Made by a program: the position numbers and the translations under genes. A model generated the notes under the pieces. The model was not told where the DNA came from and did not search any database. It worked only from the letters and a program-made list of their open reading frames with translations. A DNA stretch of 64,000 nt from Candidatus Methylomicrobium oryzae. Lineage in GTDB: Bacteria; Pseudomonadota; Gammaproteobacteria; Methylococcales; Methylomonadaceae. Of this stretch, positions 1,501 through 44,166 are shown piece after piece. Position 1 is the stretch's first letter. Every line of letters begins with the position of its first letter. The stretch lies in assembly GCF_016745425.1 (NCBI RefSeq), contig NZ_JAERVK010000018.1, forward strand, positions 1 to 64,000, given 5' to 3'.

Positions 1501-1551
1501 AGTTGGTGGGTCGTATTGGATTCGAACCAATGACAACCGCATTAAAAGTGC
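1501..1551. repeat. attL: 51-bp copy of the tRNA-Lys 3' end
   Basis: Fifty-one bases identical to 44116-44166, covering the 3' part of the tRNA-Lys gene (anticodon-stem side, T arm, acceptor 3' strand and CCA) plus three flanking bases. The match ends at 1551 and the 5' half of the tRNA is absent, so this is a crossover duplication and not a functional tRNA. It marks the left end of the island and, from the integrase at 337-1377, may also be the right end of a neighbouring element. Confidence 0.93.
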
Positions 1552-10758: not shown

Positions 10759-13700
10759 TTGTTTTGTACCGTACATAATGCAGAAAAAGACGGATTTGGA
10801 AAAATCATTCACATTGAGGGTCAGTGGGTTGTCGTCGAGTATTTTGATTCGCCGGCCATTGAAAAGCATCCCCGGGTGAAAGTTCCACAAACGTCAATTA
10901 CACCGAAACGATTAGGATGCAATACACGCGTGTTCATCTTCGACGAAATATCGAACCAGTGGCGTATCGGTAGGGTTCGACATGACGACGGCGAAGGGAT
11001 CGAAGTCCGTTTGGCACACAAGCAGGATTTCTATATGCCCTATGAACGGGTTTTTGTTCGATGGAAGCGCCCAATCGAGGATCCCGTTGACTTCCTGGGA
11101 AATTTCGTTACCGAAACACCCCAGTATGCCGAGGCTCGCTCTGGATTTATGAGAAATTATGTATTTCAAAGGGGCGCAGCATTCGGAATTTCAGCCTTAC
11201 TATCCTCGTCGATCGAACTCGAATCGCACCAAGTCGAGGTGGTCCGGCGCGTCTTGACCGACCATACCCAGCGTTATTTGCTCGCTGATGAAGTCGGATT
11301 GGGAAAAACGATCGAAGCCGGAATCGTCATACGCCAAACCGTGCTCGACGACATGCGCAGTCATCGGATACTTGTCCTAGTTCCTCCCGAATTGGTAAGC
11401 CAATGGCGTGAAGAACTGATCGTACGCTTTGGGCTTTTAGATTTCCTCGACGAATCGGTGTTTGTGCTTCCCCAGGAAGACAGCGAGAAATTGAGGGAGG
11501 CTTTCAGTAACCTTTCCTTGCTGGTTATCGATGAAGCACACCACTTAACTGCACCCAATGCGGCGGAGTCCGTGCAACGCGTGTACTGCCTAGTGAGGGA
11601 GATGGCACAACGAGCAGAACGCCTGCTGTTGTTATCGGCGACACCGATTCTGCGTAATGAAGGTGGATTCCTCCGCATGCTGAACCTTTTGGACCCAGTG
11701 GTTTACCCACTTGATGACCTAGACGGCTTCCGTTCGAAGGTCTCCAACAGGCAAGCATTGGCCGAAACTGTCGCCGCTCTCGATCCCAACAATTCGTTTT
11801 TCATGGATTCGGCTCTTGACGACCTGTTGAGTCGACTTCCGAACGACCCCCGATTAGCCGAGTTAACGCGGAAGCTAAAGGAAAAATTACTCGACATACC
11901 GGAAGAGACCGATCCGGAGTTTTGCGCTGCCGTGAGGCAGTTGAGAGCCCATATTTCCGAAACCTACCGACTCAACCGGCGCATCTTGCGAAACCGCAGG
12001 ACGCAAATCAAGGGATTGACGCCGGAGCGTAAAGGAGCCGAACTTTGGCAAGTGGAAGATTCATCGATGGAACGGATCGAGTCCGCTCTAGAGAATTGGC
12101 GAGTAGATGCATCCCCGGCGGCAGGTGCGATGGGTACGGACAGGGCTTATGAACTCGAGGAATTTTACTTGGAAGCTGTCCGCTCTATCTTCGAAGGCCT
12201 TCCTGGGTTCCTGCGGGTCTGTGTCCAACGGTTGAATGCGATCGACAGCGGTACCTTGGTGCCATTCGATGGCGAACAGTCGCTACTCAACTCCATAATC
12301 GGGACCATTGACGTCGAGTATTGGATGGCCAATCGTCTCGAGAGGTTGTACCGGGGATTGGAGTCGCTTCCAGAAGCGTCCAAAGCCGTAATTTTTTGTG
12401 CCAACGAAAGGAGCGCCGACCAAATCTTCCAGTATCTGAATGATCGACGGGGCAATGTGGTCCGGCACGGCGTTGACGAAGAGTCCGAACGCACGGAGGG
12501 GTGTTCTTGGCAAGAGTTCCTGACCAATCCGGCGATTCGTGCCACCGTTTGTGACCACCGTGCAGAAGAGGGGATAAACCTACAAGGGGGGAACAAGGTC
12601 ATCGTCCATTTCGACCTGCCTCTTCAACCCAACCGAGTTGAGCAGCGCATGGGGCGTGTTGATCGCTACGGCTCTGGTAATCCGGTACCTTCCTACGTGC
12701 TTCTCGACGGGGGAACTCCGCTCCAAATGGCGTGGTTCCGTATCCTTGACGATGGTTTGAGCGTGTTCGACCGTTCAATCTCCAGTCTGCAATACCTAGT
12801 TGAGGATGAAATTGCATCCTTGGACTGTACATTGATCCACGAGGGATCTGAAGGATTCGACGCCCTGCGTGAGCGCTTGGCAGGACCAACCGGTGCTGTA
12901 GCTAGAGAGTTACGTCTCATTGATCAGCAGGATGCCTTAGATCAGTTATCCCCGGTTCCCGAACTGGAATTGGAAGAGTTATTCGATGCGGATGCGGATT
13001 GGAGGGAAATCAGCGACGTAATGACTTATTGGATCGAGAAAACACTTCTGTTCGAGAAGGTGAAATTACCTCGCCCAAATGGAAAGCCTTCAGTCGATGA
13101 TCCTTTCCGTTTCCATTATTGCTCTCCCGACAACGGGACTGGTCAATCGACCCTAATTCCATTATCCGAGTTCATCGACGATTTTCTGGGCGCCATCGAC
13201 TTTGACGCACCGGGCAACCGGTCGACCCGGCCGCAATCTTATCCCTATGTCGCCCACAGACCTTCGGCGGTCAAGCGCGGCGTGCGTCCGTTGCGTTACG
13301 GCGCCGAGTTCGTGGAGTCGATCAGGTCGTTTTCGGAGTTGGATGTTCGTGGTCGAAGTTACGCCATGTGGAGACAGATATTCGGCCAATTCCAGTCAAT
13401 GGAAATCCGCTCCTGCTTTCGCTTCGATTTCCTGGTCGAAACGTATTTAGACGAAGCCCTGGCTATACTTGCGAAAGAAGGGTGTTCCGCGAACGAATCG
13501 GCGCAGTCGTCTATCGCCCGGCGAGGCGACGCGTTGTTCCGTCCAGTCGTTATCCAGGTTTGGCTGGATGAAGAAGGCGATGAATTGCCACAGGAATTTA
13601 TCGAACGGTATCTGGCTGCACGGTATGCAAAGGAAGGTAGTAATGGATACATCGACAAAAATCTGGACATATCATATTTGAATGCTTTTAAGAGATGCTC

Positions 13701-14046
13701 ACCGGATATCTTCAAGAATTGGAACGAGCGGTGCGAACGCATGCGCGACAAGGCAAAAGTTATCGTGGAATCCAGGTCGGAACTATTAAATCGACAGAAA
13801 GATTCGCTTGGAAGGGCGTTAGCGGAAGATGAAATCCGCTACGCCCAGTTACAGACTCGTATCCAGTCGCTTGATGGCAGGGAGGCGACTGCCGAAGCGG
13901 AGCAACTGGTACTCGAACAAACCCTCAACGAAGCGCTTCACCGAGGCATATCTTCCCCTTCGATCAAGGTTGACGTCGCCGGGGTTGTTTTTCTAACGAG
14001 CGAACCCGTATCTCTTATAGAGGGATACCTAGAGGAAGATCGATGA
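10759..14046 (+). CDS. dpdE: DpdE, SNF2/DEAD-type helicase
   Basis: A 1095-residue SNF2-like superfamily 2 ATPase, matching DpdE of Dpd clusters in size and place. Walker A DEVGLGKT at 177-184, DEAH at 257-260, LSAT at 291-294 and the motif VI-like QRMGRVDRYGSG in the C-terminal helicase lobe are visible; a predicted coiled segment ends the protein. The start is TTG at 10759, chosen because AGGAAAGG precedes it and no better ATG exists upstream. In S. Montevideo dpdE was reported as needed for the restriction-like phenotype. It opens an eight-gene operon and overlaps dpdF by 4 bases (ATGA). Confidence 0.9.
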   Translation: MFCTVHNAEKDGFGKIIHIEGQWVVVEYFDSPAIEKHPRVKVPQTSITPKRLGCNTRVFIFDEISNQWRIGRVRHDDGEGIEVRLAHKQDFYMPYERVFVRWKRPIEDPVDFLGNFVTETPQYAEARSGFMRNYVFQRGAAFGISALLSSSIELESHQVEVVRRVLTDHTQRYLLADEVGLGKTIEAGIVIRQTVLDDMRSHRILVLVPPELVSQWREELIVRFGLLDFLDESVFVLPQEDSEKLREAFSNLSLLVIDEAHHLTAPNAAESVQRVYCLVREMAQRAERLLLLSATPILRNEGGFLRMLNLLDPVVYPLDDLDGFRSKVSNRQALAETVAALDPNNSFFMDSALDDLLSRLPNDPRLAELTRKLKEKLLDIPEETDPEFCAAVRQLRAHISETYRLNRRILRNRRTQIKGLTPERKGAELWQVEDSSMERIESALENWRVDASPAAGAMGTDRAYELEEFYLEAVRSIFEGLPGFLRVCVQRLNAIDSGTLVPFDGEQSLLNSIIGTIDVEYWMANRLERLYRGLESLPEASKAVIFCANERSADQIFQYLNDRRGNVVRHGVDEESERTEGCSWQEFLTNPAIRATVCDHRAEEGINLQGGNKVIVHFDLPLQPNRVEQRMGRVDRYGSGNPVPSYVLLDGGTPLQMAWFRILDDGLSVFDRSISSLQYLVEDEIASLDCTLIHEGSEGFDALRERLAGPTGAVARELRLIDQQDALDQLSPVPELELEELFDADADWREISDVMTYWIEKTLLFEKVKLPRPNGKPSVDDPFRFHYCSPDNGTGQSTLIPLSEFIDDFLGAIDFDAPGNRSTRPQSYPYVAHRPSAVKRGVRPLRYGAEFVESIRSFSELDVRGRSYAMWRQIFGQFQSMEIRSCFRFDFLVETYLDEALAILAKEGCSANESAQSSIARRGDALFRPVVIQVWLDEEGDELPQEFIERYLAARYAKEGSNGYIDKNLDISYLNAFKRCSPDIFKNWNERCERMRDKAKVIVESRSELLNRQKDSLGRALAEDEIRYAQLQTRIQSLDGREATAEAEQLVLEQTLNEALHRGISSPSIKVDVAGVVFLTSEPVSLIEGYLEEDR

Positions 14047-16634
14047 GTTTCGACCTCAACGACCTGCAGGCCGTTCTTGCAAACTGGCCTTCGGTGGCTT
14101 ATTGGCCCGACAAGGTTGAGGACAGTCTCCTAGACCGAATTTGCCAGGTGCTTTGGGTTGCTCATGGCAGTCGAAGACCTGGTCAGTGGCACGGTGACTT
14201 ACAACCGTTAGTTCGGCACGCACTGCTGCGCGCAAGCAAGACTGCCAGAACGACAATCAATTTAAGAGTGCCCTCTGACAATGGCTGGCCGGATGCGCAG
14301 AGTTGGGCCAAGCACGGCATCGAAGTTTTGGAAGTTGGACCTTCCGCCTTTCTGCTGACGGCGCAGGAGTGGCATCCAGATTGGCTCGGTAGTGGTGAGG
14401 GAGGGGTTTTCTCGGATGCTTTCTCCGATAGAGAGGTCCGAAAAAAAAGCTTCTGCCCTGCTGACCCTTTCGTGAGGGATGCAACCGGGTTCGAAATGTA
14501 TTCATGTCCTGGGCAAAGGGAAGCGGTACGGGCCGCATTCCTGATGCCGGAGGGGGATACCCTACTGGTAAATTTGCCTACCGGATCCGGAAAGAGCTTG
14601 GTTGGACAGGCGTCCGCCCTAGTCCATAAGGAAGCCGGCCACCTTACACTTTTTGTGGTTCCCACGGTTGCATTGGCTCTGGATCAGGAACGCGCGATGC
14701 GTGCGTTGTTTCAGCGCCAAGATCCTTCCCGTGCTGATTGGCCGCTTGCTTGGTCCGGCGGTTTGTCTCAGGAATATCGCACGGAAATTCGGCAACGCTT
14801 ACGCAATGGCACGCAGCGCATCTTGATCACCTCGCCCGAGGCGCTTACGACTTCGTTGCTACGTGCAGTTCTGGAAGCAGCAACTGCAGGGATGATTCAC
14901 TACCTGGTGATTGACGAAGCACACCTGATTACTCAATGGGGGGATGAGTTTCGTCCCACCTTCCAAGCATTGTCTGGTTTGCGCAGCAGCATGCTAAAGC
15001 GGGCACCAAGGGGTTTTCGAACCTTGCTCATGAGTGCAACTTTTACGGAGGAGACGGTAGATACATTGGCTAGCCTTTTTGGTCCTCGGGAGCGAGTGCA
15101 AATGGTGTCAGCCGTACATCTGCGACCTGAGCCGCAATATTGGTTTTCCGGCGCGAGGAGTATTGAGGAAAAGCAGGAACGCGTCTTGGAAGCATTGCGA
15201 CATGCGCCACGACCTTTCATCCTTTATGTCACAAAAAGGGACGAAGTAAGGCAATGGAATTCAATCCTTCGCCAATCCGGAGGACTTTCCAGAATCGCCA
15301 CATTCGACGGCAAGACCCCTCCCTCTGAGCGACTGAGGATCATTCGCGAATGGGCCGCAAACCGTCTCGATGGCATTGTTGCTACATCTGCTTTCGGTGT
15401 CGGTCTCGACAAGGATGATGTTCGGACCGTCATACACGCTACAATCCCCGAGACGCTGGATCGGTATTACCAGGAGGTTGGGCGCGGCGGTCGTGACGGC
15501 AAGCCGTCCGTGAGCCTGATGGTCTTTGAAGATGCCGATTGGAACTTGCCCAAGCGCCTCGCGAAACCAAGGATTATTTCAGACGAATTAGGCTTTAGTC
15601 GTTGGAATGCAATGTATCGATCTCGCCGCGCGACTAGTGAGGAGAACTTATGGGAAATCGATATAGATGCCGTTCGAACTGGACTGCTTGGCGGGAGCGA
15701 GGAAAACGTCAATTGGAACATGCGAACCTTAATCCTAATGGCAAGGGCCAGACTGATAGCGCTCGAACTCGAGAACAATCCTGATGAAACGCTCGAAGAA
15801 CCGGGTGAGGACGCATCTTCGCTGTTGGCAGCCATTGCCAATATGAGAGTGCGAATCCTTGATTACGGACACCTTACAGAACGCTGGGAAGAGGCAATCA
15901 GTGCTTCGCGTTCTGCTACGCTACAGGCTGCAGGCCGCAACTTGCAGATGATGCATCAACTCCTTCCTGGTTCGTCCAGGAAGGAGGCTCAGGTAGGGAA
16001 GGAGGTAGGGGAAACGCTTTGCCAGTTATACCGCATCACGTCTCCGCAATGGCCTGTGTATGTGAGCCATGCATGCGGTGGCTGTCCTAGTGATCGCTTC
16101 GAACCAATTGAGCATGGCCATTATGCGGAGCCTGTTGCAATACCGGTCAATCGTGTAGTTACCTCTAGGCCTGAGGCGTGGTTGGAGAGATTTCCATGGC
16201 TGGATCCCTCTTTTGTGTTCGTCTTTTATGATGAGACACAGCCAGAGTCGACAATCCGTCAGGATTTTATTCGGTTCGCGGCATGGCTCGTTCAGTGTTG
16301 CGGAGTACGCGAGATTTCCATCAATCCCGCCTCTTCCTTTGCACAACTTCCCGAGTGGAACGGACTTTACAAGCGTGCGCGGGACAAGGTGGTTCTGCAT
16401 CGTTCGTTGATGGAGTTCGATATGGAACCCTATTCCCCTCTCGCCCGGATGACTTTACTGGATCCAGACGCATCTTTGGAGCTCGTCCAAAAAGTTCAGA
16501 TGCTGCAACGACCTTTTCACTTGGTACTCCTTCCGCTCGCCCTGCCCGATCCTGGGAATAGACAGCGCCGCTTGTACGATGTGAGTCCGAATAAAATACG
16601 ACTAGACGACTTGATACAAGAGATCATTCAATGA
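14043..16634 (+). CDS. dpdF: DpdF, RecQ-like helicase
   Basis: An 863-residue RecQ-type superfamily 2 helicase. Walker A PTGSGKS lies near residue 178, DEAH near 290 (VIDEAHLITQWG), then LLMSATF, and the C-terminal lobe has TSAFGVGLDKDDVRTVIHA and QEVGRGGRDG. A Cys pair (HACGGC) sits late in the protein. Known as DpdF in Dpd islands and presumed to unwind or translocate on DNA as part of the restriction machinery. ATGA overlaps couple it to dpdE and dpdG. Confidence 0.9.
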   Translation: MSFDLNDLQAVLANWPSVAYWPDKVEDSLLDRICQVLWVAHGSRRPGQWHGDLQPLVRHALLRASKTARTTINLRVPSDNGWPDAQSWAKHGIEVLEVGPSAFLLTAQEWHPDWLGSGEGGVFSDAFSDREVRKKSFCPADPFVRDATGFEMYSCPGQREAVRAAFLMPEGDTLLVNLPTGSGKSLVGQASALVHKEAGHLTLFVVPTVALALDQERAMRALFQRQDPSRADWPLAWSGGLSQEYRTEIRQRLRNGTQRILITSPEALTTSLLRAVLEAATAGMIHYLVIDEAHLITQWGDEFRPTFQALSGLRSSMLKRAPRGFRTLLMSATFTEETVDTLASLFGPRERVQMVSAVHLRPEPQYWFSGARSIEEKQERVLEALRHAPRPFILYVTKRDEVRQWNSILRQSGGLSRIATFDGKTPPSERLRIIREWAANRLDGIVATSAFGVGLDKDDVRTVIHATIPETLDRYYQEVGRGGRDGKPSVSLMVFEDADWNLPKRLAKPRIISDELGFSRWNAMYRSRRATSEENLWEIDIDAVRTGLLGGSEENVNWNMRTLILMARARLIALELENNPDETLEEPGEDASSLLAAIANMRVRILDYGHLTERWEEAISASRSATLQAAGRNLQMMHQLLPGSSRKEAQVGKEVGETLCQLYRITSPQWPVYVSHACGGCPSDRFEPIEHGHYAEPVAIPVNRVVTSRPEAWLERFPWLDPSFVFVFYDETQPESTIRQDFIRFAAWLVQCCGVREISINPASSFAQLPEWNGLYKRARDKVVLHRSLMEFDMEPYSPLARMTLLDPDASLELVQKVQMLQRPFHLVLLPLALPDPGNRQRRLYDVSPNKIRLDDLIQEIIQ

Positions 16635-17554
16635 GTATCCTTAACCGTGAAAGCGACGGCCTCTATTCTATTCTTCTGACACTCGTAACTGCTCTTATTC
16701 GGGAAAAAGAAATTTCGCGAGATGATCTGATCAGTACTTGGGGGCGAATACCACCACAAGAGGATGGGAAAGATCGGCTAAGCCGTCTCCGAGGGACGCT
16801 AAATCGTTGGATCGCACTCGGTTTATTTGTCGAAGACGAAAAATACGTTAGTCTTGCCTTCGATCCCAAAAAAGGCGAGTCGGTGGAGTCCTATCTAGTG
16901 CGAATTCCGGCAATATGCCGTGAACTTGCTTTTCGTTCGGAACATGGCAATCCATTATGGCCTGAGGGCGACAAAGTCACTGAAGAAGACTTGGGGGTGA
17001 CCGCCGACCTATGTCGTGGATTGGCATGGTGTCTTTGTCAGGACATTTATACACTCCCAACTTCTTGGGATCGCGGGGTCAATGATCTCATCAAATATCA
17101 GGTAGTGCCTGGACGTGCAATTATCCAGAATAACACCCGTTGGAATGGATTGGCAGATTGGGCTCGATTCTTGGGGTTTGCCGTGGATACCAGAGCGGGC
17201 ATCTTCTTTGATCCCACGACTGCTGTTCGGTCGGAATTGGACAGTTTCATGAAATGTGGTGTACAGATTCCTGCGGAGGAGTTCGCCTCGCAGTTGGCTT
17301 TTCGTTTACCCGTGTTGGATACCGGATCATATCGAGTTGAGGTGGAACGGGCGCTTCGACCCGAAGCCTGGTCGGAACCTCCTACCGGATCTCTGTCAAC
17401 TGCACTGTCATTCGCTTTGCGGCGGCTTCAGAAACAGAATGTTATCGACTTGAGAACCCTATCAGACGCCAACTCCAAACTGACGTTGACCAGACAAGGG
17501 GGGCGGGTTTGGGATAGCTTCACCCACGTAAGTCTGAAGGAGAAGTTGTCATGA
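16631..17554 (+). CDS. dpdG: DpdG
   Basis: A 307-residue soluble protein identified as DpdG mainly by position between dpdF and dpdH and by size. No catalytic motif is visible; the N- and C-terminal parts look like winged-helix segments (for example LLTLVTALIREKEISRDDLI near the start and LSFALRRLQKQNVIDLRTL near the end). In S. Montevideo dpdG was implicated in restriction. Four-base overlaps with both neighbours suggest it is made in fixed ratio with them. Confidence 0.8.
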   Translation: MSILNRESDGLYSILLTLVTALIREKEISRDDLISTWGRIPPQEDGKDRLSRLRGTLNRWIALGLFVEDEKYVSLAFDPKKGESVESYLVRIPAICRELAFRSEHGNPLWPEGDKVTEEDLGVTADLCRGLAWCLCQDIYTLPTSWDRGVNDLIKYQVVPGRAIIQNNTRWNGLADWARFLGFAVDTRAGIFFDPTTAVRSELDSFMKCGVQIPAEEFASQLAFRLPVLDTGSYRVEVERALRPEAWSEPPTGSLSTALSFALRRLQKQNVIDLRTLSDANSKLTLTRQGGRVWDSFTHVSLKEKLS

Positions 17555-20500
17555 GCCTACTGAAGTATTGGCCTACCGCCGACCAAATCAACGATTGTAT
17601 AAAGCACGAAGCTGAAGGGGCGCACGACGCCGTATTGCTGGCTGCCCACCGGCCTTCACCACTTAGTTACAAGCAGATTTCCTCCGGTGAGAAATTCAAT
17701 GCCAGCGAAGAGGAACTATTCGAATATCTGATTTCCAAAGACGTGCCGTCTGGTGCCCACGTCGTGCCCATCACGGGAGTTTCTGGTGTCGGTAAGTCGC
17801 ACATGGTGCGTATACTGAATGCCCGTTTGCAAAGTTTGAATGGTGACCGCAAGTATGTAGTGATCCGCATTCCGAAGAGTGCAAGCCTGCGGAAAGTTGT
17901 AGAACTGATTTTGGAAAAGCTTCCGGAAGATGAATACGCCCAAGTGAGGATGGAATTCGCAAAGGCGCTGACTGAGGATCTCGACGTAGAAACTGCGGTC
18001 GTACGGTTCCAAGGGGAGTTGAACGTCGCATTGGGTCAGTTGAGCAAGGCATTGGAAATCCGGGCACGGGAAAATCCGAGCGATTCCAAGTTGAGGGCTC
18101 AATGGGGGCATGCGCGCGAACTACCTAAGTTTTTGGCAGATCCGGTCCTTGTTGACCATTTTTGCGAGAGAGTGTTTCCTCGGTTCGTCCGGCGTGCTAT
18201 CGCAGGAAGTCTAGATGCCGAAAACGAGGCATTCGTGAAGGATTTCATTCCTGACGATTTACTTCTGCCAGATGATCTTGATCTTACCAAGGCAGCCCAT
18301 TCGACTAAATTTTACTACACCGGAAACCTACTGGTTCGCGACAGAGAAGGGATGCGTGTGGCCACTCGTCTGCTTAACGAGAATAAGGTTGTTGATCAGG
18401 CCATCCGTCAGTTGTTCAACCTACACCAAGCATTGGGTGGCATGACCCTGCAGGATGTCATACTTGAGATTCGTCGCCGCTTGCTTGTAGAAGGCCGGGA
18501 GTTGGTGATTTTCGTAGAAGATTTCAAGGCACTTACCGGGATTCAGGACATATTGCTTAATGTCCTGATCCAGGAAGGTGTTCGGGACGGGGTTCAACAA
18601 TTAGCCACGATGCGATCGGTTATCGCGGTCACAGACGGGTATCTAGATCGCGCGGATACGATCGCGACCCGCTCTAAACGGGAGTGGAGGGTGGAAAGCG
18701 AGTTATCCAGTCCAGAGGAGGTTTTTAGTCGCACCAAGACCTTGGTTGCAGCGTATTTGAACGCCGCTCGATGGGGGTTCAAAGAATTGGTGCGCCACTT
18801 CGAAGCAAAAGGTGATGCGGGTGTTGACCAAAGCGCGTGGATTGGCCCTTACGTCGATCCTGATGACGATGAAACTCATCTTCTGGAAGCCTTCGGTTCC
18901 AAAGACGGAATTCCGCTATTCCCATACACTGAACAAGCCATTGAACAACTAGCCCGAATAGCACTTACTCGTAACGATAAACTAACGTTCACTCCGCGTT
19001 TCATTATCGATAACATTCTCCGAACCCTTCTTTTGCAAGGTCGTCCAGTCTTTGAGAGAGGGCAATTTCCACCCGTCAGCATCAATGCGCCGAGGATGGA
19101 AGCAGAGATTGATCAGTGGTTGGCGTCGCTGCCCGTTTCGGTTGAAATCAGGGAGCGCTATCGGCGTGTCGTAGCCATCTGGGGTAATACGCCGCGGAAG
19201 GTGGCAGAAATAGGCTATATCCCTAAAGAAGTGTTCGATGCGTTCAAGTTAGACCGCCCGAATATCGTGTTCCAGAACCCACCTGAGCCGAAATCCCCAG
19301 GGACGAATGTAAAGGACGGGCCAGCACCTCCACCACCTCCACCACCCAGAACGGAGGATGCTTCCCTGATTGAAGCGCTTGAAAAATGGGTTCAAGGTGA
19401 GCGCTTGCCCCAAGGCGTGGCCAACCAAATCAGAAATTCAGTCGCTGATGCGCTAAATGACCGCATTGATTGGAATGCCGAGCGATGTGCGAAGATAGAG
19501 AAGATCGTGGAAAGATCAAAAATTTCGATTCCAAATGCAATGGGCGAAACTACGATCGATAAGAACCCTATTATAGTTGCGGACGATCATACTGACCCTA
19601 ATGGGCAGCTACGCTCCGAATTGGCTGCGGTAACACGTCTCTACGGATTAAATTCAGGCAAGGTTTCTTATGCGGATGCCGATGACGATATGATTTGGGT
19701 GGGCAACCTTGTTGACCGACTCATGCCCCAAACGCTATCCCTAATCCGCGCCGAAATGCAGCAGAGACTTGGTGTAACCCTAAGACTTCTACAGACAAAT
19801 AGCCAAATATTGGGCTTGATCGCTCGTGGTAGGACCCCCGCTAGTCTTGCGCCCTTTTTATTTGATGACGTTGAAAACTCAACGAGTCTTCCTTTGGATT
19901 GTAATCAAGCCTTCAAGGATTGGTACGCATTGAAGGGGGCAGCGCTCCGTGTCCGCCCTGAATTGATCCCAAAGGTTGTGTCTTTCTGCGGAAGCTTCCA
20001 AGGTGACAGCACCAAGACTCCATATGCAATTGATATGATTAGACTTTCGAACTCACTACAGTCTGAGGTTGGATCAATAAGGCCTGGTGATCTTGGTTTT
20101 ACGGCTGATTCAGTGGGATTACTCCAAAATGAGTTACGCGAATCCGTTGTGAAGATAAAAGCTAAAAATGTACTCAAAGAGGCGACCTCTATCCGAACTA
20201 CTCTCATAGCTGAATTTGGGGAAAGCTTCGATAAACAGGAGATTGTTGATGAGTTCGAGGCGCTGGCAGACCAGTTAGGTGAATGCGGTGCCTGGTCGGA
20301 GCAAGAAATCGGTATGGGCAAACTTGCTTTCAAGAACCGTTGCAAAGAATTCCGAGGCGTAGCGGTGCGCGAAGCTCTTGCTACGCTTTCGATTGCAGGT
20401 GAGGAAGGTACAGAGCAAAGTGATGCCCAGCTGCTGAGTCGGATGGGTCGACTCAATGTCAATCCGCTTATCGTTGCAGGCAATTTCGTGGAAAAGGCCC

Positions 20501-21374: not shown

Positions 21375-21386
21375 TCAGAGGTGGCT

Positions 21387-25925: not shown

Positions 25926-26455
25926 GTGTCCAATACCGCCGCATTTTTAAGACCCAAACCACCGGAGTTGCTACCATCCAGGAACTGATGCAGACGATGT
26001 TCGTGGCTGAGGTGCTGCAACCTGGCGATGATGTTTGGATAGTCTCTCCTTGGATTAGCAACGTCGTGCTAATCGACAACCGATCCGGAAACTTTGATGC
26101 TCTGAATCCAGAGTGGGGGCGCCGTGAGATCCGCCTTGCAGACGTACTGGTGACTTTAATGAGCCACGGCACGAGGGCGCATGTTGTTACGCGCAACGAG
26201 AGCAGTAACGATTCGTTCCGTACTAGGATTGCCGACCTAGCCAGCGAACACGACCTGGAGGACTCCTTAACGGTATACATCCATGACCAACTCCACACGA
26301 AGGGGATACTGCTTACGAGATGCCTGCTAATGGGATCGATGAACCTGACCTACAACGGCATGACCATCAACGACGAATGGGTGGAGTTTTCTCTTGACCC
26401 GATCGATCTCAGTCGGACGCGACTCGAATTCGCGCGCTACGGGGAAGGCCAATGA
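25922..26455 (+). CDS. dpdK: DpdK, phospholipase D-like nuclease
   Basis: A 177-residue protein of the PLD superfamily with a single HKD-type site: HTK near residues 124-126 and GSMN near 137, inside HDQLHTKGIL and LLMGSMNLTYNG. One HKD per chain usually means an active homodimer. As the only clear nuclease candidate of the restriction arm, it is the likely DNA cutter acting on unmodified DNA; that role is inferred from the family and the published phenotype of dpdK. ATGA overlaps with dpdJ and dpdD. Confidence 0.9.
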   Translation: MSVQYRRIFKTQTTGVATIQELMQTMFVAEVLQPGDDVWIVSPWISNVVLIDNRSGNFDALNPEWGRREIRLADVLVTLMSHGTRAHVVTRNESSNDSFRTRIADLASEHDLEDSLTVYIHDQLHTKGILLTRCLLMGSMNLTYNGMTINDEWVEFSLDPIDLSRTRLEFARYGEGQ

Positions 26456-28731
26456 TCGACACCTTACTTCCGCGGGACATATCCTGGCTCGAAGCCTTTT
26501 TCTCGGGCCGTAACGCATTGAAATGGGAAGCTGTCATTGGGCGTAGTGCGCCTCCGGCATGGTTGGAGCAAGTCCTCCCGTGGATCGCATCACTTGCCAG
26601 TTCGGGGGCTAGTTCGCCCATCGTCTTGCCTGTTTTTGGACCCAATGGGCCTTGCCAATGGTACGGCATGGCATCTGATGAGGTGGGGGCAAACGCGTTG
26701 TCCCAAGAATTGACAGCGTTTGTCGGTCCAAGTTTTAGTGACTTTCGGGGACAATTTCTCAGCCCGGACCCAGTCGACGCAATCGAGAGGGTCTTGCTTG
26801 AACGCTTCGGCCGTTTCGTGTTTCGCTTCGACCCGGTTAACGGAGCGGCTTGCTCCGTCATAGCTGACTCCCTCCAGTTGTATTTGGGCTTGCTCCGGCG
26901 CCGTCCCAAAATTCCTGACCGGACACAGCGCCCGTTCGGCAAAGTACGCGCCGAGTTCGACCGCGCCTTGCTGGTCGGAAGCGAATCGGACGCGCAGCGT
27001 TTGCGCGAAGAATTGGTCAGCAGTGGACGGTTGGACGCAGAGCAGCAAAAGTACCTGGACATCCGGATGCTGGCTGGCTTGGGCCGCCAGTATCAATTGG
27101 CGCATGATTATCCCCTCGTGAAGTCGGTTCTTGGCCTATCGCTTCCCGCTCAAACCATTGCCGACTTGGTCGGAGCCCTCTATACGACCTATATCACTGA
27201 ACTAGAAGACAGCGGTAATGACGATGCGCTCCTGACCACGTTCCGGAAGGAGATCGCGGACAACTTCGGTCCGCTGTTCCTCGAACGGAAAGGCGTCATG
27301 CACCCAAGTGTGCTCAAAGCCTTCATGCTCTACGAACTCGTACAGGCCGAACCTAACAGGGAACGCTGCCAAGCTATTGTCTCCATCTACCCGGAGGATG
27401 ACGGACGCGCCCTGGTCGAGCGTTGGGCCGGACGCTTGGCCGCGAATGCCTTGCCCCGGACCGATCTTTTCGAGTCCGCACGCCAAGCATTGGCAGACGA
27501 GGACTATGGGTTGGCACTCCATCTCTCATTCGATGCCTTTCCAGCATTGTGGACGTATGGTGCGATGCTCCGTTGCGCGGCGGAGATGGAGGACGAGGAA
27601 GTCGCGCTCAGGGTTCTCGCGGCGGTGGAAGCGGCGCCCGATGCCGAGCGCCTGAACTGGACGAAGAGGGATCTGGCCAGGCTCCAGCAATTGCGCGCCG
27701 AGTTCTCCGGAAAGTCCGAGGAAACCATTGTGATGGCAAACCGTACACCCCGTCCGGAAGCGGATTGGCTATCGTGGGTCAGCTATGTCGAATCTGGGAG
27801 ACACGACCGTCCGCCGCTGCAGGTCTTGGAAGATGCCTTGCCCCGCTGGAGCGTCGAATCTTATGCCTCGGATCCACCTTTGTGCCGTGAATTGGCGGAA
27901 AGGATCGGGAATGCTGGCGGTGCCGCGGAACAGATACTCCGCGACGCGTTCGTTCCCCTGGTCGAGTTCTTCGTAGACCGGCCGGCCCTTCCGGTCCGTG
28001 GCTTCGGCCCCCTCTACGCGATGCTGATCCGTATCGTTGCCTGGAACGGCATGGTCTCCGCAAACGAACTCGAGTTGGCTTCTGCGCTTGTGCAGGCGTT
28101 GGTCAGTCTCGCACCATCGAGGCAGGATTATGTGGAGGCTGTCGATGCCTACGCAGAGATACTAGGCGCGAACAACGCTCCGAGTAACGTCGATTGGGCC
28201 CTCAACGCGGCCGAAATGCTGGCACTGCATGCCTCTCCGGATAACGGCGAGTCGCGGTTACGGTTCTTTATGGCAGTTGTCGAGATGGCCCGCGCGTGCG
28301 CGCACCGCCTCCGACCGGTCCAGTATGAAATACTGTCTTTGTTGGCCAAGGATTATGGCTGCTCTGGTTTATTGGAGGCTTTTCCAACCCTACAAGGCGC
28401 TTCTGAAGAACTGACACTGCGGACCGACTTCGCCGGCCTGATAGGTATCTATACCCTGACGGAACCGGCAGGGCAAAGGGCCCAGCAATTCCTTCGCAAG
28501 TTATTGCCGCAGGCCAAGGTAGAAGTGAATGCTGACCACGTTGCGACTGACAAGCTCAAGCATCTGGCGACCAATGCCGACATCTTCGTTTTTGCATGGA
28601 AGAGCAGCAAGCACCAAGCCTATTTTGCGGTGAAGGACGCTCGGGGATCCAAGCAAACCCTTCTCCCTCTGGGTAAAGGAAGCGCCAGCATTCTTGACTG
28701 CGTACTGGGACAACTCGAGCGGAATGGTTGA
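26452..28731 (+). CDS. dpdD: DpdD
   Basis: A 759-residue protein, last gene of the restriction operon. The N-terminal third is variable, the middle is made of helical repeat-like segments, and the C-terminal region (VEVNADHVATDKLKHLATNADIFVFAWKSSKH) is the conserved DpdD-like end. No classical nuclease or ATPase motif is visible. In S. Montevideo dpdD was among the genes required for restriction. It converges on the H-NS-like gene with only three bases between the two stops. Confidence 0.85.
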   Translation: MIDTLLPRDISWLEAFFSGRNALKWEAVIGRSAPPAWLEQVLPWIASLASSGASSPIVLPVFGPNGPCQWYGMASDEVGANALSQELTAFVGPSFSDFRGQFLSPDPVDAIERVLLERFGRFVFRFDPVNGAACSVIADSLQLYLGLLRRRPKIPDRTQRPFGKVRAEFDRALLVGSESDAQRLREELVSSGRLDAEQQKYLDIRMLAGLGRQYQLAHDYPLVKSVLGLSLPAQTIADLVGALYTTYITELEDSGNDDALLTTFRKEIADNFGPLFLERKGVMHPSVLKAFMLYELVQAEPNRERCQAIVSIYPEDDGRALVERWAGRLAANALPRTDLFESARQALADEDYGLALHLSFDAFPALWTYGAMLRCAAEMEDEEVALRVLAAVEAAPDAERLNWTKRDLARLQQLRAEFSGKSEETIVMANRTPRPEADWLSWVSYVESGRHDRPPLQVLEDALPRWSVESYASDPPLCRELAERIGNAGGAAEQILRDAFVPLVEFFVDRPALPVRGFGPLYAMLIRIVAWNGMVSANELELASALVQALVSLAPSRQDYVEAVDAYAEILGANNAPSNVDWALNAAEMLALHASPDNGESRLRFFMAVVEMARACAHRLRPVQYEILSLLAKDYGCSGLLEAFPTLQGASEELTLRTDFAGLIGIYTLTEPAGQRAQQFLRKLLPQAKVEVNADHVATDKLKHLATNADIFVFAWKSSKHQAYFAVKDARGSKQTLLPLGKGSASILDCVLGQLERNG

Positions 28732-28734
28732 GAG

Positions 28735-29043
28735 TTATGTTTTAAATATATCAATAGATTGACCTTGATTTATATATGCACTTAACCATCTAGGGATGCG
28801 CCCTTTTCCCGTCCAAGTGTTTTTATGGTTGTTGGGATCTCTATACTTAATAGAAGGACGGACTTTATTTGAAAACCTTTCAATATCGCCTGGCACAAAA
28901 ATCTCAACATGTATATTGATGCTTTCAGCCAATTGTTTAATCTGTTGAATTCCACGAAGTCTTAGCTCATTTTGACGCTCCTTTAGTGAAAAAATTAAAT
29001 CATCAATTTCTTTTACTGAAAGATTGTTATTGTCAATTGCCAT
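28735..29043 (-). CDS. H-NS-family nucleoid protein
   Basis: A 102-residue H-NS-like DNA-binding protein. The N-terminal half is a short coiled dimerisation region; the C-terminal half carries the diagnostic core TWTGKGRIPRWL (about residues 76-87) preceded by YRDP. Such proteins coat AT-rich foreign DNA and silence it. Lying between the dpd restriction operon and the AT-rich modification operon, it may restrain one or both, or silence competing foreign DNA. AGGAT precedes the ATG. TATAGT upstream (near 29083) may be its -10 box. Confidence 0.88.
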   Translation of the reverse strand: MAIDNNNLSVKEIDDLIFSLKERQNELRLRGIQQIKQLAESINIHVEIFVPGDIERFSNKVRPSIKYRDPNNHKNTWTGKGRIPRWLSAYINQGQSIDIFKT

Positions 29044-29197
29044 AACTTATCGAATCCTATTGGTTTATAGTTAATAATTTCTGATACTATAGGGCATAAA
29101 GAATCACTCAGGTAAGGCTGGATCTTGATCACCCCAAGATAAAATCACCCCACAACCCGGACTCTCATAAAGATCAATTCGATCAACTTGGGGTATC

Positions 29198-29395
29198 GTA
29201 AGCGGCCAGTCATTCCACATCGCCAGGTCGTTACCGTTATGATGTAATCCAAGGCAGCAATTCGTCGATGCGGATGTTGGGCCAGGCGGGGAGCTTTTTC
29301 AATATCTCTTTTAGCCAAGCAGAGGGATCAAGGCCGTTGAGTTTGGCGGTGCCATTACCAATAGTTTCAAGACATAACCCTATCGGTACGTCTTG
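29198..29395 (-). mobile_element. IS66-family scar
   Basis: A minus-strand remnant of an IS66 TnpC C-terminus: GTAKLNGLDPSAWLKEILKK then RIDELLPW and a stop at 29237, followed by non-coding sequence that ends in the IS66-type terminal GTAAGCGG at 29198. Only the last 45 or so codons survive. It abuts and slightly overlaps the 3' end of dpdB2, whose last residues (RTDRVMS) may come from the junction. Confidence 0.7.
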
Positions 29396-30446
29396 AGCGT
29401 AGATCAGATCTGACAATGGAGGTAAGATAATGAGTGAGAGAGACGATATCTTTATTAATGTTTTGAATGGCTTTCCAGTGGCGAATATCATTTTCCGCCA
29501 ATTTCCACTCGCCGTGCGTCCATGCGGTACGTCCAGATAAACATCCCATGCCCTTTGCGAAATCTTCCCAATTTCTTGCTCCGTCAAGCAATGCCAGTAT
29601 TTCCATAACGTAGCCCAATGAAACAATCCCTGCACCGTGAACTAATCGCGATGTCTTTGGCGTATGCCCATTCCATTCATTTGCAAATACTTTTTGGACT
29701 GCTCGATAAAATTCGCTAATAAGACTAAAACAGCGCTCGGCACCATCATTTTCTTTTATAAATTCGCGCATCATTCCATCGTTAACGGAATTCATAACCA
29801 CTCGTTGAATTGAGGTGTCTGCAATAAAGCCATTTGGATTAGTTTGCTGACGAATTAATCCTTTCAGTGACGAGTTAGGGTCATAATTAAGGCGGACTGT
29901 TAAATCGGCCGCAAAAGTGCGTCCGTCTAGTCTGTGGGGAAGTCCATTTACGGTGGGCAACAACTCGTAAATAAGTGATTTTGGAAGTGGTTTTGTATTG
30001 TTAATCAATACAAATTGTCGTCTTAGTTCTGCATCGTCTTTACAGATCAACGCCGAAACGAAAACCTGAAAATCCTTATTTTCAATTTGGCTTAGTGCGC
30101 TCAATCTTTGTTGACCATCTACAACAAGTCCTGGTGGAATATCTGAAGTTTCTATCAATATTCGGCAGACGTTTCCATTCAACGGTTCGATCGTAATGCC
30201 ATCAGTAAAAGCAACTACAATGGGGTTGGGTAGAACTGCTTCAGCTTTTTCAAGATAATCGCGAATTTCTCTAATATGTGAAGCAATTTGTGGGCGTTGA
30301 AACCCACTGAGATGGCCCTCTGAATCTCGGCCAATTCTTTCGATAGATGCAAAGCGTAAAAGATCTTCGGCACTTGCAGCAAAAGAAACAACTGTGTGGT
30401 TAGGACTTTGTTGAGCGCGAATTGCTAAGAACGATATTTTATCCAT
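29367..30446 (-). CDS. dpdB: DpdB-like DGQHR-domain protein, second copy
   Basis: A 359-residue protein of the DGQHR/ParB-related family. DGQQR lies at 110-114 in LVVDGQQRLSALSQ, followed by RRQFVLINNTKPLPKSLIYELLP. DpdB in S. Montevideo is needed with DpdA for putting preQ0 into DNA. It overlaps dpdA by 8 bases. A second gene of the same family precedes dpdA, sharing GFQR..I.SHI, VLPN, the DGQQR box and the KPLP..LI.ELLP stretch, so the two are paralogues. The C-terminus borders an IS66 scar and may be slightly altered. Confidence 0.85.
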   Translation of the reverse strand: MDKISFLAIRAQQSPNHTVVSFAASAEDLLRFASIERIGRDSEGHLSGFQRPQIASHIREIRDYLEKAEAVLPNPIVVAFTDGITIEPLNGNVCRILIETSDIPPGLVVDGQQRLSALSQIENKDFQVFVSALICKDDAELRRQFVLINNTKPLPKSLIYELLPTVNGLPHRLDGRTFAADLTVRLNYDPNSSLKGLIRQQTNPNGFIADTSIQRVVMNSVNDGMMREFIKENDGAERCFSLISEFYRAVQKVFANEWNGHTPKTSRLVHGAGIVSLGYVMEILALLDGARNWEDFAKGMGCLSGRTAWTHGEWKLAENDIRHWKAIQNINKDIVSLTHYLTSIVRSDLRSRRTDRVMS

Positions 30447-31716
30447 TTAGTGAGCCTTGTTTGTTTAGGGTATCAATTATCCCTTTATATACTTGGAGAT
30501 TATGCATTCCACGTCGCCTATTCCTATTGCTAGCACGAAAAATCATTACCTCTATAGAGCTCTGCTGGCAAATTGGACACGGACACTTTTTCCAAGGTTT
30601 TTCAGTGAGAGTTTCGAGGTATTGCGCCTTTAACGTAGTAATTTTATTGGTGTGCTTTACTTCGTCATAAGGTTTCTCCAGCATAAGAGGAGAGCTGTAC
30701 AACATGACGGCTTCAAGGGTTTCTTCTAATTCAGCAAGTCCTTCGTCATATGCTCTTAGATAAAGAAGTGCATTTTTTTCCAGCTTGACTAAATCTTCCG
30801 AACGAAAGACGCCCCGCTTAATTAGTCTTAGCAATCGTTGGTTCTCAATTGCTTGGGGTACACGAATTGCTGTGAAATAGCGTAAAGAAACTTCGCCTGT
30901 GCGGACGTAATAGTTCTGTTTATTATCTTTAAATGCCCGAATTAAAGGAGATGTGGTATCAAAGCTAGTGATGTTATAAGGTGTAAAAGTCGAAATCTCA
31001 TCAGCTTTTGCGAAACCCAAGATATGTAACCGGGTAGATGCGGGAATGCTTGATCGGATACACTTAAGGCACATTTTAATTTGCGCTGCTTTTAGTGGGA
31101 CCATCCCTCCTACAGCCAGATATGTATATCCCATAGAAACCAGGCGTCGTGCTGCTTCGGCCATGCTCTCTGGAGACCAACCTTGAACCACTCCGAGAGG
31201 GGTGAATCCTTTTCCTAAGGCTCGGCTTTCTTTTAAAAAAACATCAGCATTTTCTAACGTTATATCAAAACGTCGCAGTGCTTCTTCACTCCCTCCTTCC
31301 AGACCTTTTACTGTAGGATCAAAGTCGAAAATAATGTGGTCAACTGAGCACCCATGAGAAAACTGACCATCATGGTAAAACTCCAGCATATTTTCTGGTG
31401 AGAATGGTGGCACGTCTTCTTTAACATATGAGAATGCGCCACAATCGCCAAAGATATCTAGGTGACTAAATTTGGGATGATTGAGTCTCAGAAATTCTCG
31501 TGCTCCAATTCTACGGAATCGCATTGCTTGTGAGTCTGTATATATGCCATCTACAGTTGCTCTTGATACTAAGATGCCATCATAGGGTGCTGAGATAAAC
31601 ATTTCATGTGGGTAACAATCGTCCCAATATACTTTCCGGCTAGGTTTCGATCGATCGTTTAAAAAGTCATACTCGGGATCAACCATATCCATGCTGTCGG
31701 CAAAGATAAACTTCAT
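30439..31716 (-). CDS. dpdA: DpdA, DNA 7-deazaguanine transglycosylase
   Basis: A 425-residue paralogue of tRNA-guanine transglycosylase, which in Dpd clusters exchanges guanine in DNA for preQ0. Active-site-type features are the first Asp at 91 in GDCGAFSYV, VGGMVP at 202-207, and the nucleophile-type Asp253 in SFDTTSP. The C-terminal zinc site reads CPCPIC (C378, C380, C383) with MHN about 20 residues later. The divergence from tRNA enzymes and the company of dpdB and dpdC identify DpdA. Four-base overlap with dpdB1 upstream and eight with dpdB2 downstream. Confidence 0.94.
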   Translation of the reverse strand: MKFIFADSMDMVDPEYDFLNDRSKPSRKVYWDDCYPHEMFISAPYDGILVSRATVDGIYTDSQAMRFRRIGAREFLRLNHPKFSHLDIFGDCGAFSYVKEDVPPFSPENMLEFYHDGQFSHGCSVDHIIFDFDPTVKGLEGGSEEALRRFDITLENADVFLKESRALGKGFTPLGVVQGWSPESMAEAARRLVSMGYTYLAVGGMVPLKAAQIKMCLKCIRSSIPASTRLHILGFAKADEISTFTPYNITSFDTTSPLIRAFKDNKQNYYVRTGEVSLRYFTAIRVPQAIENQRLLRLIKRGVFRSEDLVKLEKNALLYLRAYDEGLAELEETLEAVMLYSSPLMLEKPYDEVKHTNKITTLKAQYLETLTEKPWKKCPCPICQQSSIEVMIFRASNRNRRRGMHNLQVYKGIIDTLNKQGSLNG

Positions 31717-32834
31717 CGATCCCGCCTTGATAATTCCCTATCCAGTCTAATAAGAAATTCACTTAATCTTATAATATGTTGCCCAGTATTTTGAACTTCA
31801 TTCCAACGCCAACCAAGGTCTGGCCAAGTTCCTTCTGTCCACGCACAATGAGGGGCGAGTCTTTGCAAGGAATTATGTACTTCAACTTCTGGGTTAGGGA
31901 AGCCATCCGCCCTCAACATAATTTGATCCATTAATGCTCCCAATGCTCGAATCCCAGCTGAATGCATCAATCGACTTTCAGTGGGAGGCTTACCCCAAGC
32001 GTTTTGAAAAACGTCACGCGCGGCAGACCAGTAGGTAATTAGAGTCCTATACATGCCTTCCGTATCGGTGACGTTAGAAATCTTGAATTGACTAAGAGCT
32101 CCCAATGGAGATTTTAAATTTCGGCGAAAGGCTTCAATTAATGCAGAATCGACTACGATGGCATTGGTGCTTTCAGAATCAGATTCTCTTCGGATCAAGC
32201 GGTAAAATGGGGAGTTGGGATCTTTATTAAGAAGGTTACATAATTCGCTCGGAAGTTTTCTTACAGCTAAATCTTTAGGCAAAGCCATATTTACCTCTGG
32301 AAGTAGTTCGTTGATCAATCGAGTTGGAAGCGGTTTCGCTTTGTTAACCAATATGAACTGCTCTCGCTGAATTTCGATATCTGGACAAACGAAGCCTACA
32401 ACTGGAATTGCGATTTCATTGTTCTTTGCTTTAGCCAAAGCCAATGAGCGCTGTTGTCCATCTACAATCCAAGCTATACGCTTGCCTTCAGGATAAATAG
32501 GAATAGATAGTGTTCCTGCCTGAGCAACGTCTATAAAGTTTATAGGGGATGGACCTCGAGTTTGTTTAAATTCAATTTCGTTCGAGAGAGCTAATATAAT
32601 GGCATTAGGAAATAAAACTGGCCCACTATCTAAGAACTCAACAATAGCATTAACGTGACTACGAATTTCTTTACGTTGGAACCCCCGCATTTCACCCTCT
32701 TCCCTACAAACGCGTGAAATATCAGCGATCTTTGTTATATCAGAGCCAAAAACAAAAAAAGAATAAACATCGACATTATTACCTTGGGTACTATGTAACG
32801 CTCGAACAACTATGTGTTCCATTGCTTTAGGCAT
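31713..32834 (-). CDS. dpdB: DpdB, DGQHR-domain protein, first copy
   Basis: A 373-residue member of the DGQHR family with DGQQR at 125-129 (AWIVDGQQRSLALAKAKN), preceded by GFQRKEIRSHVNAI and followed by REQFILVNKAKPLPTRLINELLP. The family is thought to act in DNA modification or restriction with an NTPase-like mechanism; DpdB helps DpdA in S. Montevideo. It starts one base into the dpdC stop (TAATG) and ends by ATGA overlap with dpdA. Whether this or the 29367-30446 gene is the orthologue of the single Salmonella dpdB cannot be decided by eye. Confidence 0.88.
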   Translation of the reverse strand: MPKAMEHIVVRALHSTQGNNVDVYSFFVFGSDITKIADISRVCREEGEMRGFQRKEIRSHVNAIVEFLDSGPVLFPNAIILALSNEIEFKQTRGPSPINFIDVAQAGTLSIPIYPEGKRIAWIVDGQQRSLALAKAKNNEIAIPVVGFVCPDIEIQREQFILVNKAKPLPTRLINELLPEVNMALPKDLAVRKLPSELCNLLNKDPNSPFYRLIRRESDSESTNAIVVDSALIEAFRRNLKSPLGALSQFKISNVTDTEGMYRTLITYWSAARDVFQNAWGKPPTESRLMHSAGIRALGALMDQIMLRADGFPNPEVEVHNSLQRLAPHCAWTEGTWPDLGWRWNEVQNTGQHIIRLSEFLIRLDRELSRRDR

Positions 32835-33763
32835 TAGCGGACCTCCATTAACTTCGCTACGCCATAGAAGAGTCTTTGAAATCTTTTTTGCTCACAAGCG
32901 ACGCCTAAGGAGGCTCTAAAAAACCTTAACATTTTTGTTGGTGACGTAAAGTTTTCAGACCATTGCTCTTTAATAAGGTTACTAATGTCCTGGTCTGAAA
33001 ATCTGGCACCAGTATCAACTTTGTGCGGTTGTAGTTGCTTCAAAACCTCCTCAACTGAGGCATAGTGATTTTCAGAAGAGTTATTAGTTGAATTTGGAAG
33101 AATAGATTCGACAAAATGCCGTAATGCCCGCTGAGGAAAGTCATTCAATGTTCCCCGATTTGGCCCTTTTTGACTATCAAATCGCTCATCGTACGGCATC
33201 AAATAGGGTAAAAGGCAGCTTGAAATGTTGCGACCGTTCGCTCTTATAAATAACCGGAGTTTCGATTTTTCGGAGTTGTTTAGATCGATAAGTTGAGGCT
33301 CGAACAATCTATAGTAAGGAAGCGACATTGCAATTAATATTAAGTCGTATGAACTGGTATCGAAAGTAACTGAAAAAGGGCTTTTACGATTTAAAGCTTC
33401 CCACCAGTCCGAAGCATTTCCTTGGTTTAGTTTATAAAGTACACAGTCTGGATTCCCTCGTGAAATCGTTAAGTTATAGGGCGGGACCTCTTTTGAACCC
33501 GCTATTAACCCAAGCCCTGCTGAAGCAATAAGCAGGTTCGCATTTAACAACGAAACAGCACTTTTTACCTCTTTGAACACTCTTCCTGAATAAAGGTTTT
33601 CAGCTGAAATTTTCTGATTAGCTTTGGATAATTGCGCAAACCATCGATCTGAAAGTTCATCTGCATTACCAGAATGATAATGACCAATACTACACTCGGG
33701 AAGCGCGTCCATTCGTTTTCTGTTCGTGCAGTTTGTAATGATTAACGTCTTATTTTTCAACAT
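32834..33763 (-). CDS. dpdC: DpdC, YaaA/DUF6884-like
   Basis: A 309-residue protein with the pattern of the YaaA/DUF6884 group: LIITNCTNRKRM at the N-terminus, ENLYSGRVFKEVKSA around 55-70, and ASAGLGLIAGSKEVPPYNLTI around 80-100. DpdC is required in S. Montevideo to turn DNA-bound preQ0 into the amide form (dADG), presumably as a nitrile hydratase. The C-terminal third is helical and specific to this branch. It is first in the modification operon and is preceded by a region carrying a perfect 9-bp inverted repeat. Confidence 0.8.
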   Translation of the reverse strand: MLKNKTLIITNCTNRKRMDALPECSIGHYHSGNADELSDRWFAQLSKANQKISAENLYSGRVFKEVKSAVSLLNANLLIASAGLGLIAGSKEVPPYNLTISRGNPDCVLYKLNQGNASDWWEALNRKSPFSVTFDTSSYDLILIAMSLPYYRLFEPQLIDLNNSEKSKLRLFIRANGRNISSCLLPYLMPYDERFDSQKGPNRGTLNDFPQRALRHFVESILPNSTNNSSENHYASVEEVLKQLQPHKVDTGARFSDQDISNLIKEQWSENFTSPTKMLRFFRASLGVACEQKRFQRLFYGVAKLMEVR

Positions 33764-44115: not shown

Positions 44116-44166
44116 AGTTGGTGGGTCGTATTGGATTCGAACCAATGACAACCGCATTAAAAGTGC
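44116..44166. repeat. attR: 51-bp repeat within tRNA-Lys
   Basis: Identical to 1501-1551; covers the 3' half of the tRNA from the anticodon loop to CCA plus three flanking bases. Right boundary of the island. Confidence 0.93.

What the first reader, a model, noticed from the sequence alone, without database searches (positions are those of the whole stretch)
10759..33763. Complete two-arm Dpd 7-deazaguanine DNA modification and restriction system
Eight coupled genes (dpdE-F-G-H-I-J-K-D) face four (dpdC-dpdB-dpdA-dpdB) across an H-NS-like gene. DpdA carries TGT-type active-site and zinc motifs, DpdK one HKD nuclease site, and three different SF2 helicases are present. Together with queC and queE this predicts dPreQ0/dADG in the host DNA.
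Basis: partly seen in the sequence, partly recalled or inferred. Interest (0 to 1): 0.85.

Follow-up and report, generated by a model that had tools for sequence, protein, structure and literature searches.

The report
Complete Dpd DNA-modification and restriction island
This stretch carries a complete, known kind of bacterial immune system that probably marks its own DNA with a modified guanine and attacks unmarked DNA, and comparison with relatives shows that its marking half and its attacking half are swapped between bacteria as separate blocks.

Summary
The finding is right: a complete dpd cluster lies at 10759-33763. Nine of the eleven Dpd families pass NCBIfam's curated cut-offs, DpdC rests on PADLOC (E 1e-83), and DpdI is just under its cut-off. 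It is a member of a known kind. In the GATOR-GC preprint, intact clusters are the commonest dpd composition and dpdB has the most extra copies (passages).

Corrections: the island's own queD is broken (the host has another copy), and DpdK lacks the D of the HKD motif. The cluster lies between 51-bp perfect direct repeats 42.7 kb apart, one in a tRNA-Lys gene.

New here: the two arms are inherited separately. Methylomonas sp. LW13 has the window's modification arm (dpdB-A-B 94-98% identical) but the restriction arm of another genome, G338 (75-95%; 37-61% to the window's). G414 and an Enterobacter cloacae plasmid are a second case. Gene-distance correlations average 0.85 within the modification arm, 0.94 within the restriction arm and 0.39 between arms. 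In 18 of 22 dpdA clusters examined, two old DpdB paralogues flank DpdA. DNA modification and restriction remain untested.

The parts
1501..1551 (.). left copy of a 51-bp perfect direct repeat (putative attL)
   Evidence: exact match to 44116-44166
7798..8481 (+). queC, 7-cyano-7-deazaguanine synthase (preQ0 supply)
   Evidence: PF06508 E 1.5e-66; TIGR00364 206.5 against cut-off 150.3
8465..9130 (+). queE, 7-carboxy-7-deazaguanine synthase
   Evidence: TIGR04508 315.2 against cut-off 240
9212..10049 (+). insertion sequence with a transposase read in two overlapping frames; sits in the 5' part of queD. Ends approximate; IS481-like is my label
   Evidence: rve and rve_3 domains; inverted TGTTTACAG ends; absent between queE and queD in LW13
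9986..10358 (+). queD remnant, broken: 5' part cut by the insertion, remainder in two frames
   Evidence: PF01242 in two pieces; three-frame reading, and an intact 119-aa homologue in LW13
10759..14046 (+). dpdE, SNF2/RapA-type helicase
   Evidence: NF041062 1001/500; PADLOC 5e-251
14043..16634 (+). dpdF, RecQ-like DEAD helicase
   Evidence: NF041063 909/550
16631..17554 (+). dpdG, no Pfam domain
   Evidence: NF041064 275/80
17551..20655 (+). dpdH, AAA-type ATPase (weak Pfam, under cut-off)
   Evidence: NF041065 834/450
20652..21374 (+). dpdI, unknown function
   Evidence: NF041066 141.7, cut-off 150, so just under; PADLOC 1.4e-7
21381..25925 (+). dpdJ, YprA-family SF2 helicase
   Evidence: NF041067 1748/800
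25922..26455 (+). dpdK, PLD-type nuclease with H, K and GSxN but no HKD aspartate
   Evidence: NF041068 211/100; alignment
26452..28731 (+). dpdD, helical-repeat protein with a C-terminal alpha/beta domain in a low-confidence model
   Evidence: NF041061 563/300; model pLDDT 73, pTM 0.40
28735..29043 (-). H-NS-like gene between the arms
   Evidence: PF00816 3.2e-14
29367..30446 (-). dpdB2, DGQHR/DndB-like protein
   Evidence: NF041060 389/300; VDGQQR kept
30439..31716 (-). dpdA, DNA-guanine transglycosylase
   Evidence: NF041059 540/200; PDB 7UI4 E 3e-95
31713..32834 (-). dpdB1, paralogue of dpdB2 (32% identical)
   Evidence: NF041060 441/300
32834..33763 (-). dpdC, DUF6884/YaaA-like enzyme, predicted to turn dPreQ0 into dADG
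   Evidence: PADLOC 1.2e-83; weak DUF6884, under cut-off
42971..44032 (+). tyrosine integrase beside the tRNA gene
   Evidence: PF00589 3.5e-24
44116..44166 (.). right copy of the 51-bp repeat (putative attR), in the 3' part of tRNA-Lys (44119-44194, -)

Best explanation
This is a complete Dpd modification-restriction island. FolE, QueD, QueE and QueC make preQ0, partly from host copies because the island queD is broken. DpdA exchanges guanine in DNA for preQ0, helped by the DGQHR ATPases DpdB1 and DpdB2 that flank it, and DpdC converts the nitrile to the amide (dADG). The restriction arm (helicases DpdE, F and J; ATPase DpdH; PLD nuclease DpdK; DpdD, G and I) senses and destroys DNA without the mark. 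Shown here: gene identity, order, apparent intactness, presence of every preQ0 enzyme, the island-like boundaries, and that each arm is inherited as a block and exchanged independently of the other. Inferred from the characterised Salmonella system: the chemistry and the restriction. Inferred here: that the restriction arm reads the chemical mark rather than the modification proteins, since arms of very different ancestry are found together; and that DpdB1 and DpdB2 work as a pair.
For: Profiles over curated cut-offs for 9 of 11 Dpd families, DpdC by PADLOC, DpdI just under. DpdA against 7UI4. preQ0 enzymes in the genome. Arm exchange: identity table; trees in which WIN+LW13 (modification) and LW13+G338 (restriction) are each supported 100/100, the alternatives rejected at p-AU 7.8e-17 and 5e-7; DNA block edges; second case G414 against L072; correlations within and between arms. 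DpdB pair: order dpdC-dpdB1-dpdA-dpdB2 in 18 of 22 dpdA clusters, VDGQQR kept in 18 of 18 DpdB1 and 18 of 18 DpdB2. Literature passages.
Against: No chemistry or phage data for this strain. The island queD is broken, so supply depends on the host. DpdK lacks the HKD aspartate, and nuclease activity is unproven. DpdI is under its curated cut-off. Between-arm correlation is low but not zero (mean 0.39; 24 of 28 pairs at permutation p of 0.05 or less). The clades in the AU tests were named after the identities had been seen; the restriction tree has a long branch (L012) and six rows of unusual composition. G338's dpdE is split, so that arm may be inactive there.
Confidence: 0.9

Rival explanations
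1. The arms were not swapped; restriction genes merely evolve faster than modification genes.
For: Restriction genes do diverge more in most listed pairs, e.g. DpdA 71% with DpdJ 39-40%.
Against: LW13 and G338 show the reverse: restriction arm 75-95%, modification arm 34-67%. One genome cannot be both by rate alone. Trees conflict strongly, and DNA identity changes sharply at intergenic edges. Between-arm correlation is far below within-arm.
Confidence: 0.05
2. The island marks DNA but the restriction arm is silent or non-functional in this host, so the mark serves only as protection against other nucleases.
For: DpdK lacks the HKD aspartate; an H-NS-like gene sits between the arms; [quoted passage not shown]
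Against: All eight restriction genes are intact and overlapping, and the aspartate is also missing in 4 of 6 aligned DpdK, LW13's included.
Confidence: 0.15
3. The system is decaying: the broken queD and nearby transposons mark an island on its way out, and the DNA carries no deazaguanine.
For: Broken queD with an IS; transposase genes or fragments at 33910-38767.
Against: All twelve dpd genes have intact frames and intact FolE, QueD, QueE and QueC genes exist elsewhere in the genome.
Confidence: 0.08

Closest known systems
Methylomonas sp. LW13 dpd cluster (NZ_CP033381.1; L008, G127)
   Same: Same gene order and orientation; dpdB1-A-B2 94-98% and queC 88.6% protein identity; H-NS-like gene in the same place (51%).
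   Different: Restriction arm only 37-61% identical and instead 75-95% like G338's; queD intact; two further genes (a third DGQHR protein and a 304-aa ORF) between the arms.
Dpd system of Salmonella enterica Montevideo (described from passages; original papers not held)
   Same: Modification genes dpdA-C and restriction genes dpdD-K; DpdA related to 7UI4, whose source I recall as this strain.
   Different: The related enterobacterial type on E. cloacae pPOL9A has one DpdB, after DpdA, and no dpdB between dpdC and dpdA; here two DpdB flank DpdA.
Double-DpdB dpd clusters of other Proteobacteria (e.g. Sinorhizobium L073, Agrobacterium L074, Cupriavidus L015)
   Same: dpdC-dpdB1-dpdA-dpdB2 order; public annotation already names two DpdB on L073, L074, L075 and L076.
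   Different: There the queC/queE genes follow dpdB2, whereas here they lie beyond dpdE at the far end of the restriction arm.
BRIGADE and DISARM
   Same: Share a YprA-family helicase and PLD nuclease with Dpd (passages).
   Different: One YprA-family helicase here, whereas BRIGADE usually has two; the DISARM DrmD match of DpdE is far under cut-off, 147 against 610.

Membership tests
Dpd | DpdA, a TGT-family DNA-guanine transglycosylase | tested here: met
   NF041059 540/200; 7UI4 E 3e-95
Dpd | DpdB, DGQHR ATPase | tested here: met
   two copies, 441 and 389 against 300; VDGQQR motif. ATPase activity itself not tested
Dpd | DpdC | tested here: met
   PADLOC 1.2e-83; no NCBIfam match
Dpd | Restriction genes dpdD, E, F, G, H, J, K | tested here: met
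   all over NCBIfam cut-offs
Dpd | DpdI | tested here: inconclusive
   141.7 against cut-off 150, E 3.6e-41, in the right place; PADLOC 1.4e-7
Dpd | A source of preQ0 | tested here: met
Dpd | dPreQ0/dADG in DNA | not testable with these tools
   needs LC-MS
Dpd | Restriction of unmodified DNA | not testable with these tools
   needs transformation or phage assays
DISARM | DrmD helicase | tested here: not met
   DpdE scores 147 against cut-off 610
BRIGADE | usually two YprA-family helicases; halophilic archaea | tested here: not met
   one YprA-family helicase, DpdJ, among the twelve genes; bacterial genome. Definition, passages
Dnd phosphorothioation | dnd-associated DGQHR protein | tested here: not met
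   both DpdB score 49 against cut-off 450 of TIGR04172; other dnd genes not searched

The most novel reading that the evidence does not exclude
Dpd is not one co-evolving system but two (with preQ0 supply perhaps three) freely exchanged cassettes. Any restriction arm can work with any modification arm because it reads the chemical mark, and in the double-DpdB lineage DpdB1 and DpdB2 form an obligate unequal ATPase pair around DpdA.
Probability: 0.5. Interest if true: 0.55.

Novelty: new member of a known kind. Interest (0 to 1): 0.4.

Why it matters
The cluster itself adds one more complete Dpd island. The useful part is the natural experiment: nearly the same modification arm is found with two restriction arms that share only 37-61% identity. 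If both pairs are active, the restriction machinery recognises the DNA mark and not its partner enzymes, and the arms could be tested in mixed combinations. The conserved DpdB1-DpdA-DpdB2 order gives a direct genetic question: is each DpdB needed?

Tried and rejected
Plasmid megablast of the cluster gave no match. DpdD: the model (pLDDT 73, pTM 0.40) gave no PDB match at E 0.001 or better, so I assign no function; no sequence match in PDB either. DpdB1 has no solved relative (best E 0.84). The weak PF01702 and PADLOC DpdA matches in 184 further genomes of the family (33 bits or less) are taken as ordinary tRNA tgt, not DpdA. preQ0 genes as part of the modification cassette: rejected as a general rule, since queC/queE distances correlate only 0.20-0.35 with dpdA/dpdB2, although window and LW13 share both.

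Rows dropped: genes whose best ORF covered under 60% of the window protein were left out (for example L013 dpdJ, which is in pieces, and L011 dpdE). Of 17 plasmid records with a DpdA match over 80% of the query I fetched 9 and used 8; L077 was not used. L076 and L079 entered the dpdJ set with a different, much longer protein in L076 (6342 bases annotated) and a partial 27% match in L079; this lowers the A-J value (0.23), but the ten-cluster core without them gives 0.35-0.39 for dpdA against F, H, J and K.
Full report
Observation. Nine of eleven Dpd families pass NCBIfam cut-offs; DpdC matches PADLOC only; DpdI reaches 141.7 of 150. The three SF2 helicases are DpdE (SNF2-type), DpdF (RecQ-like DEAD) and DpdJ (DEAD; YprA family according to PMC12458937, passages). 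DpdA aligns over residues 1-411 with PDB 7UI4, a DNA-guanine transglycosylase.

preQ0 supply. The island has queC and queE, but its queD is broken: its 5' part is cut by an insertion sequence and the rest lies in two frames. LW13 keeps an intact queD at the corresponding place. The host has QueD on contig 10, QueC and a QueE relative on contig 62 and FolE on contig 42.

Location. A 51-bp perfect repeat occurs at 1501-1551 and 44116-44166, the latter in the 3' part of a tRNA-Lys gene, with a tyrosine integrase at 42971-44032. A third copy (98% over 54 bp) lies on contig 25, and a second integrase at 337-1377 lies outside the repeat. I read this as an integrated island of 42.7 kb; excision was not tested.

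Relatives. A genome scan with DpdA gave 11 loci. In a search of 237 genomes of the family, 186 matched the DpdA profile but only two strongly, the own genome and G127 (529 and 531 bits; the others 33 bits or less). G127 is Methylomonas sp. LW13 by its coordinates, so the host is probably a methanotroph of that family (inference). In a phylum sample of 398 genomes, 14 matched the DpdB profile, three strongly: G000, G338 and G414.

Arm exchange. Between window and LW13, dpdB2, A and B1 are 97.8, 96.0 and 94.1% identical, dpdC 71.2%, queC 88.6% and queE 79.6%. The restriction proteins are 37.4% (G) to 61.4% (K). Between LW13 and G338 it is the reverse: restriction 75.4% (I) to 94.9% (K), modification 34.3% (C) to 67.3% (B1). 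At DNA level LW13 matches the window over 4410 bases (89%) ending just beyond dpdB2, and again over queD and queC-queE, while it matches G338 over 16.7 kb (88%) and a further 930 bases (78%) from dpdD into dpdE. Trees of eight clusters conflict as expected for exchange, with 100/100 support on both sides. The direction is not settled. GC content is 49-58% in the window's restriction genes against 35-44% in those of LW13 and G338, while modification genes are 38-43% in all three, so the window's restriction arm may also have come from elsewhere.

A second case is independent. G414 and E. cloacae plasmid pPOL9A share dpdC-A-B at 92.4% over 3822 aligned bases, ending at the dpdB stop, but DpdJ, F, H and K are only 50, 40, 34 and 51% identical and the arms lie in different relative orientation. 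Pseudomonas duriflava (L012) has a double-DpdB modification arm, yet its DpdJ is closer to the E. cloacae one (52%) than to those of L014, L015 and L016 (33-36%).

Over all clusters, distance matrices correlate on average 0.85 within the modification arm (6 pairs, 0.78-0.95), 0.94 within the restriction arm (21 pairs, 0.89-0.99) and 0.39 between arms (28 pairs, 0.07-0.57). In the ten clusters with all seven test genes the values are 0.92-0.98 within and 0.28-0.42 between. DpdD goes with the restriction arm and DpdC with the modification arm. Of 14 clusters with dpdA and canonical dpdJ or dpdK in view, 10 are convergent, 1 divergent and 3 tandem (my count).

Two DpdB. All 18 clusters that have dpdB1 show the order dpdC-B1-A-B2; of the other four with dpdA, two have one DpdB and in two none was found. 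The 18 DpdB1 form one group (100/100); the 18 DpdB2 form another (95/88) that also holds a third copy of L012. The single DpdB fall with DpdB1, but on long branches that the tool warns about. Both types keep VDGQQR. The loci were mostly found with the window's DpdA, so the 18 of 22 is not a frequency in nature. Extra dpdB copies are already in print (801 among 2335 unique clusters, PMC11888242, passages).

H-NS-like gene. A relative was found in 3 of the 23 stretches compared, counting the window: LW13, same place, 51%, and L009, upstream of dpdC, 29%. Its role, perhaps silencing of an AT-rich arm, is a guess.

Mechanism and literature. The chemistry is taken from the Salmonella system as described in PMC12839542, PMC11888242 and PMC12707154, passages only. 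The primary papers were not held. I found no statement on arm exchange in the listings or in the passages read; as the primary papers were not seen, this does not show that it is new.

Verdict. A genuine, complete and apparently intact Dpd island of a known kind, with new evidence that the two arms are separate, exchangeable cassettes.

Noticed in passing
window 9986-10358: queD remnant broken by an IS element and a frame change; intact homologue in LW13 and another QueD on contig 10.
   Followed up: yes
window 1501-1551, 44116-44166; contig 25 2766-2819: 51-bp tRNA-Lys repeats with a third copy elsewhere, and a second integrase at 337-1377 outside the repeat, suggesting neighbouring elements at the same site.
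   Followed up: partly
L075, L076, L079: Double-DpdB modification arm near a different putative restriction set: in L075 and L076 an AAA/DEAD protein of about 2,100 aa that only partly resembles DpdJ; L079 shows a similar partial match.
   Followed up: no
LW13 composite 21161-23250 (L052-L054); L010, L018, L074: A further DGQHR (not DGQQR) protein near the dpd genes, in LW13 followed by a 304-aa ORF, in Agrobacterium L074 with an HNH endonuclease nearby.
   Followed up: partly
G338 (L101-L102): dpdE lies in two parts about 2.5 kb apart, so the arm may be inactive there.
   Followed up: no
window 33910-38767: Transposase genes or fragments beside dpdC: DDE_3, IS21 IstB, IS66 and Mutator types.
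   Followed up: no
window 40615-42618: AT-rich 667-aa ORF inside the island with no Pfam match and only a very weak PADLOC ankyrin match.
   Followed up: partly
MT835580.1: The only phage-collection record with a DpdA relative (61.7%), an unannotated, unverified clone.
   Followed up: no
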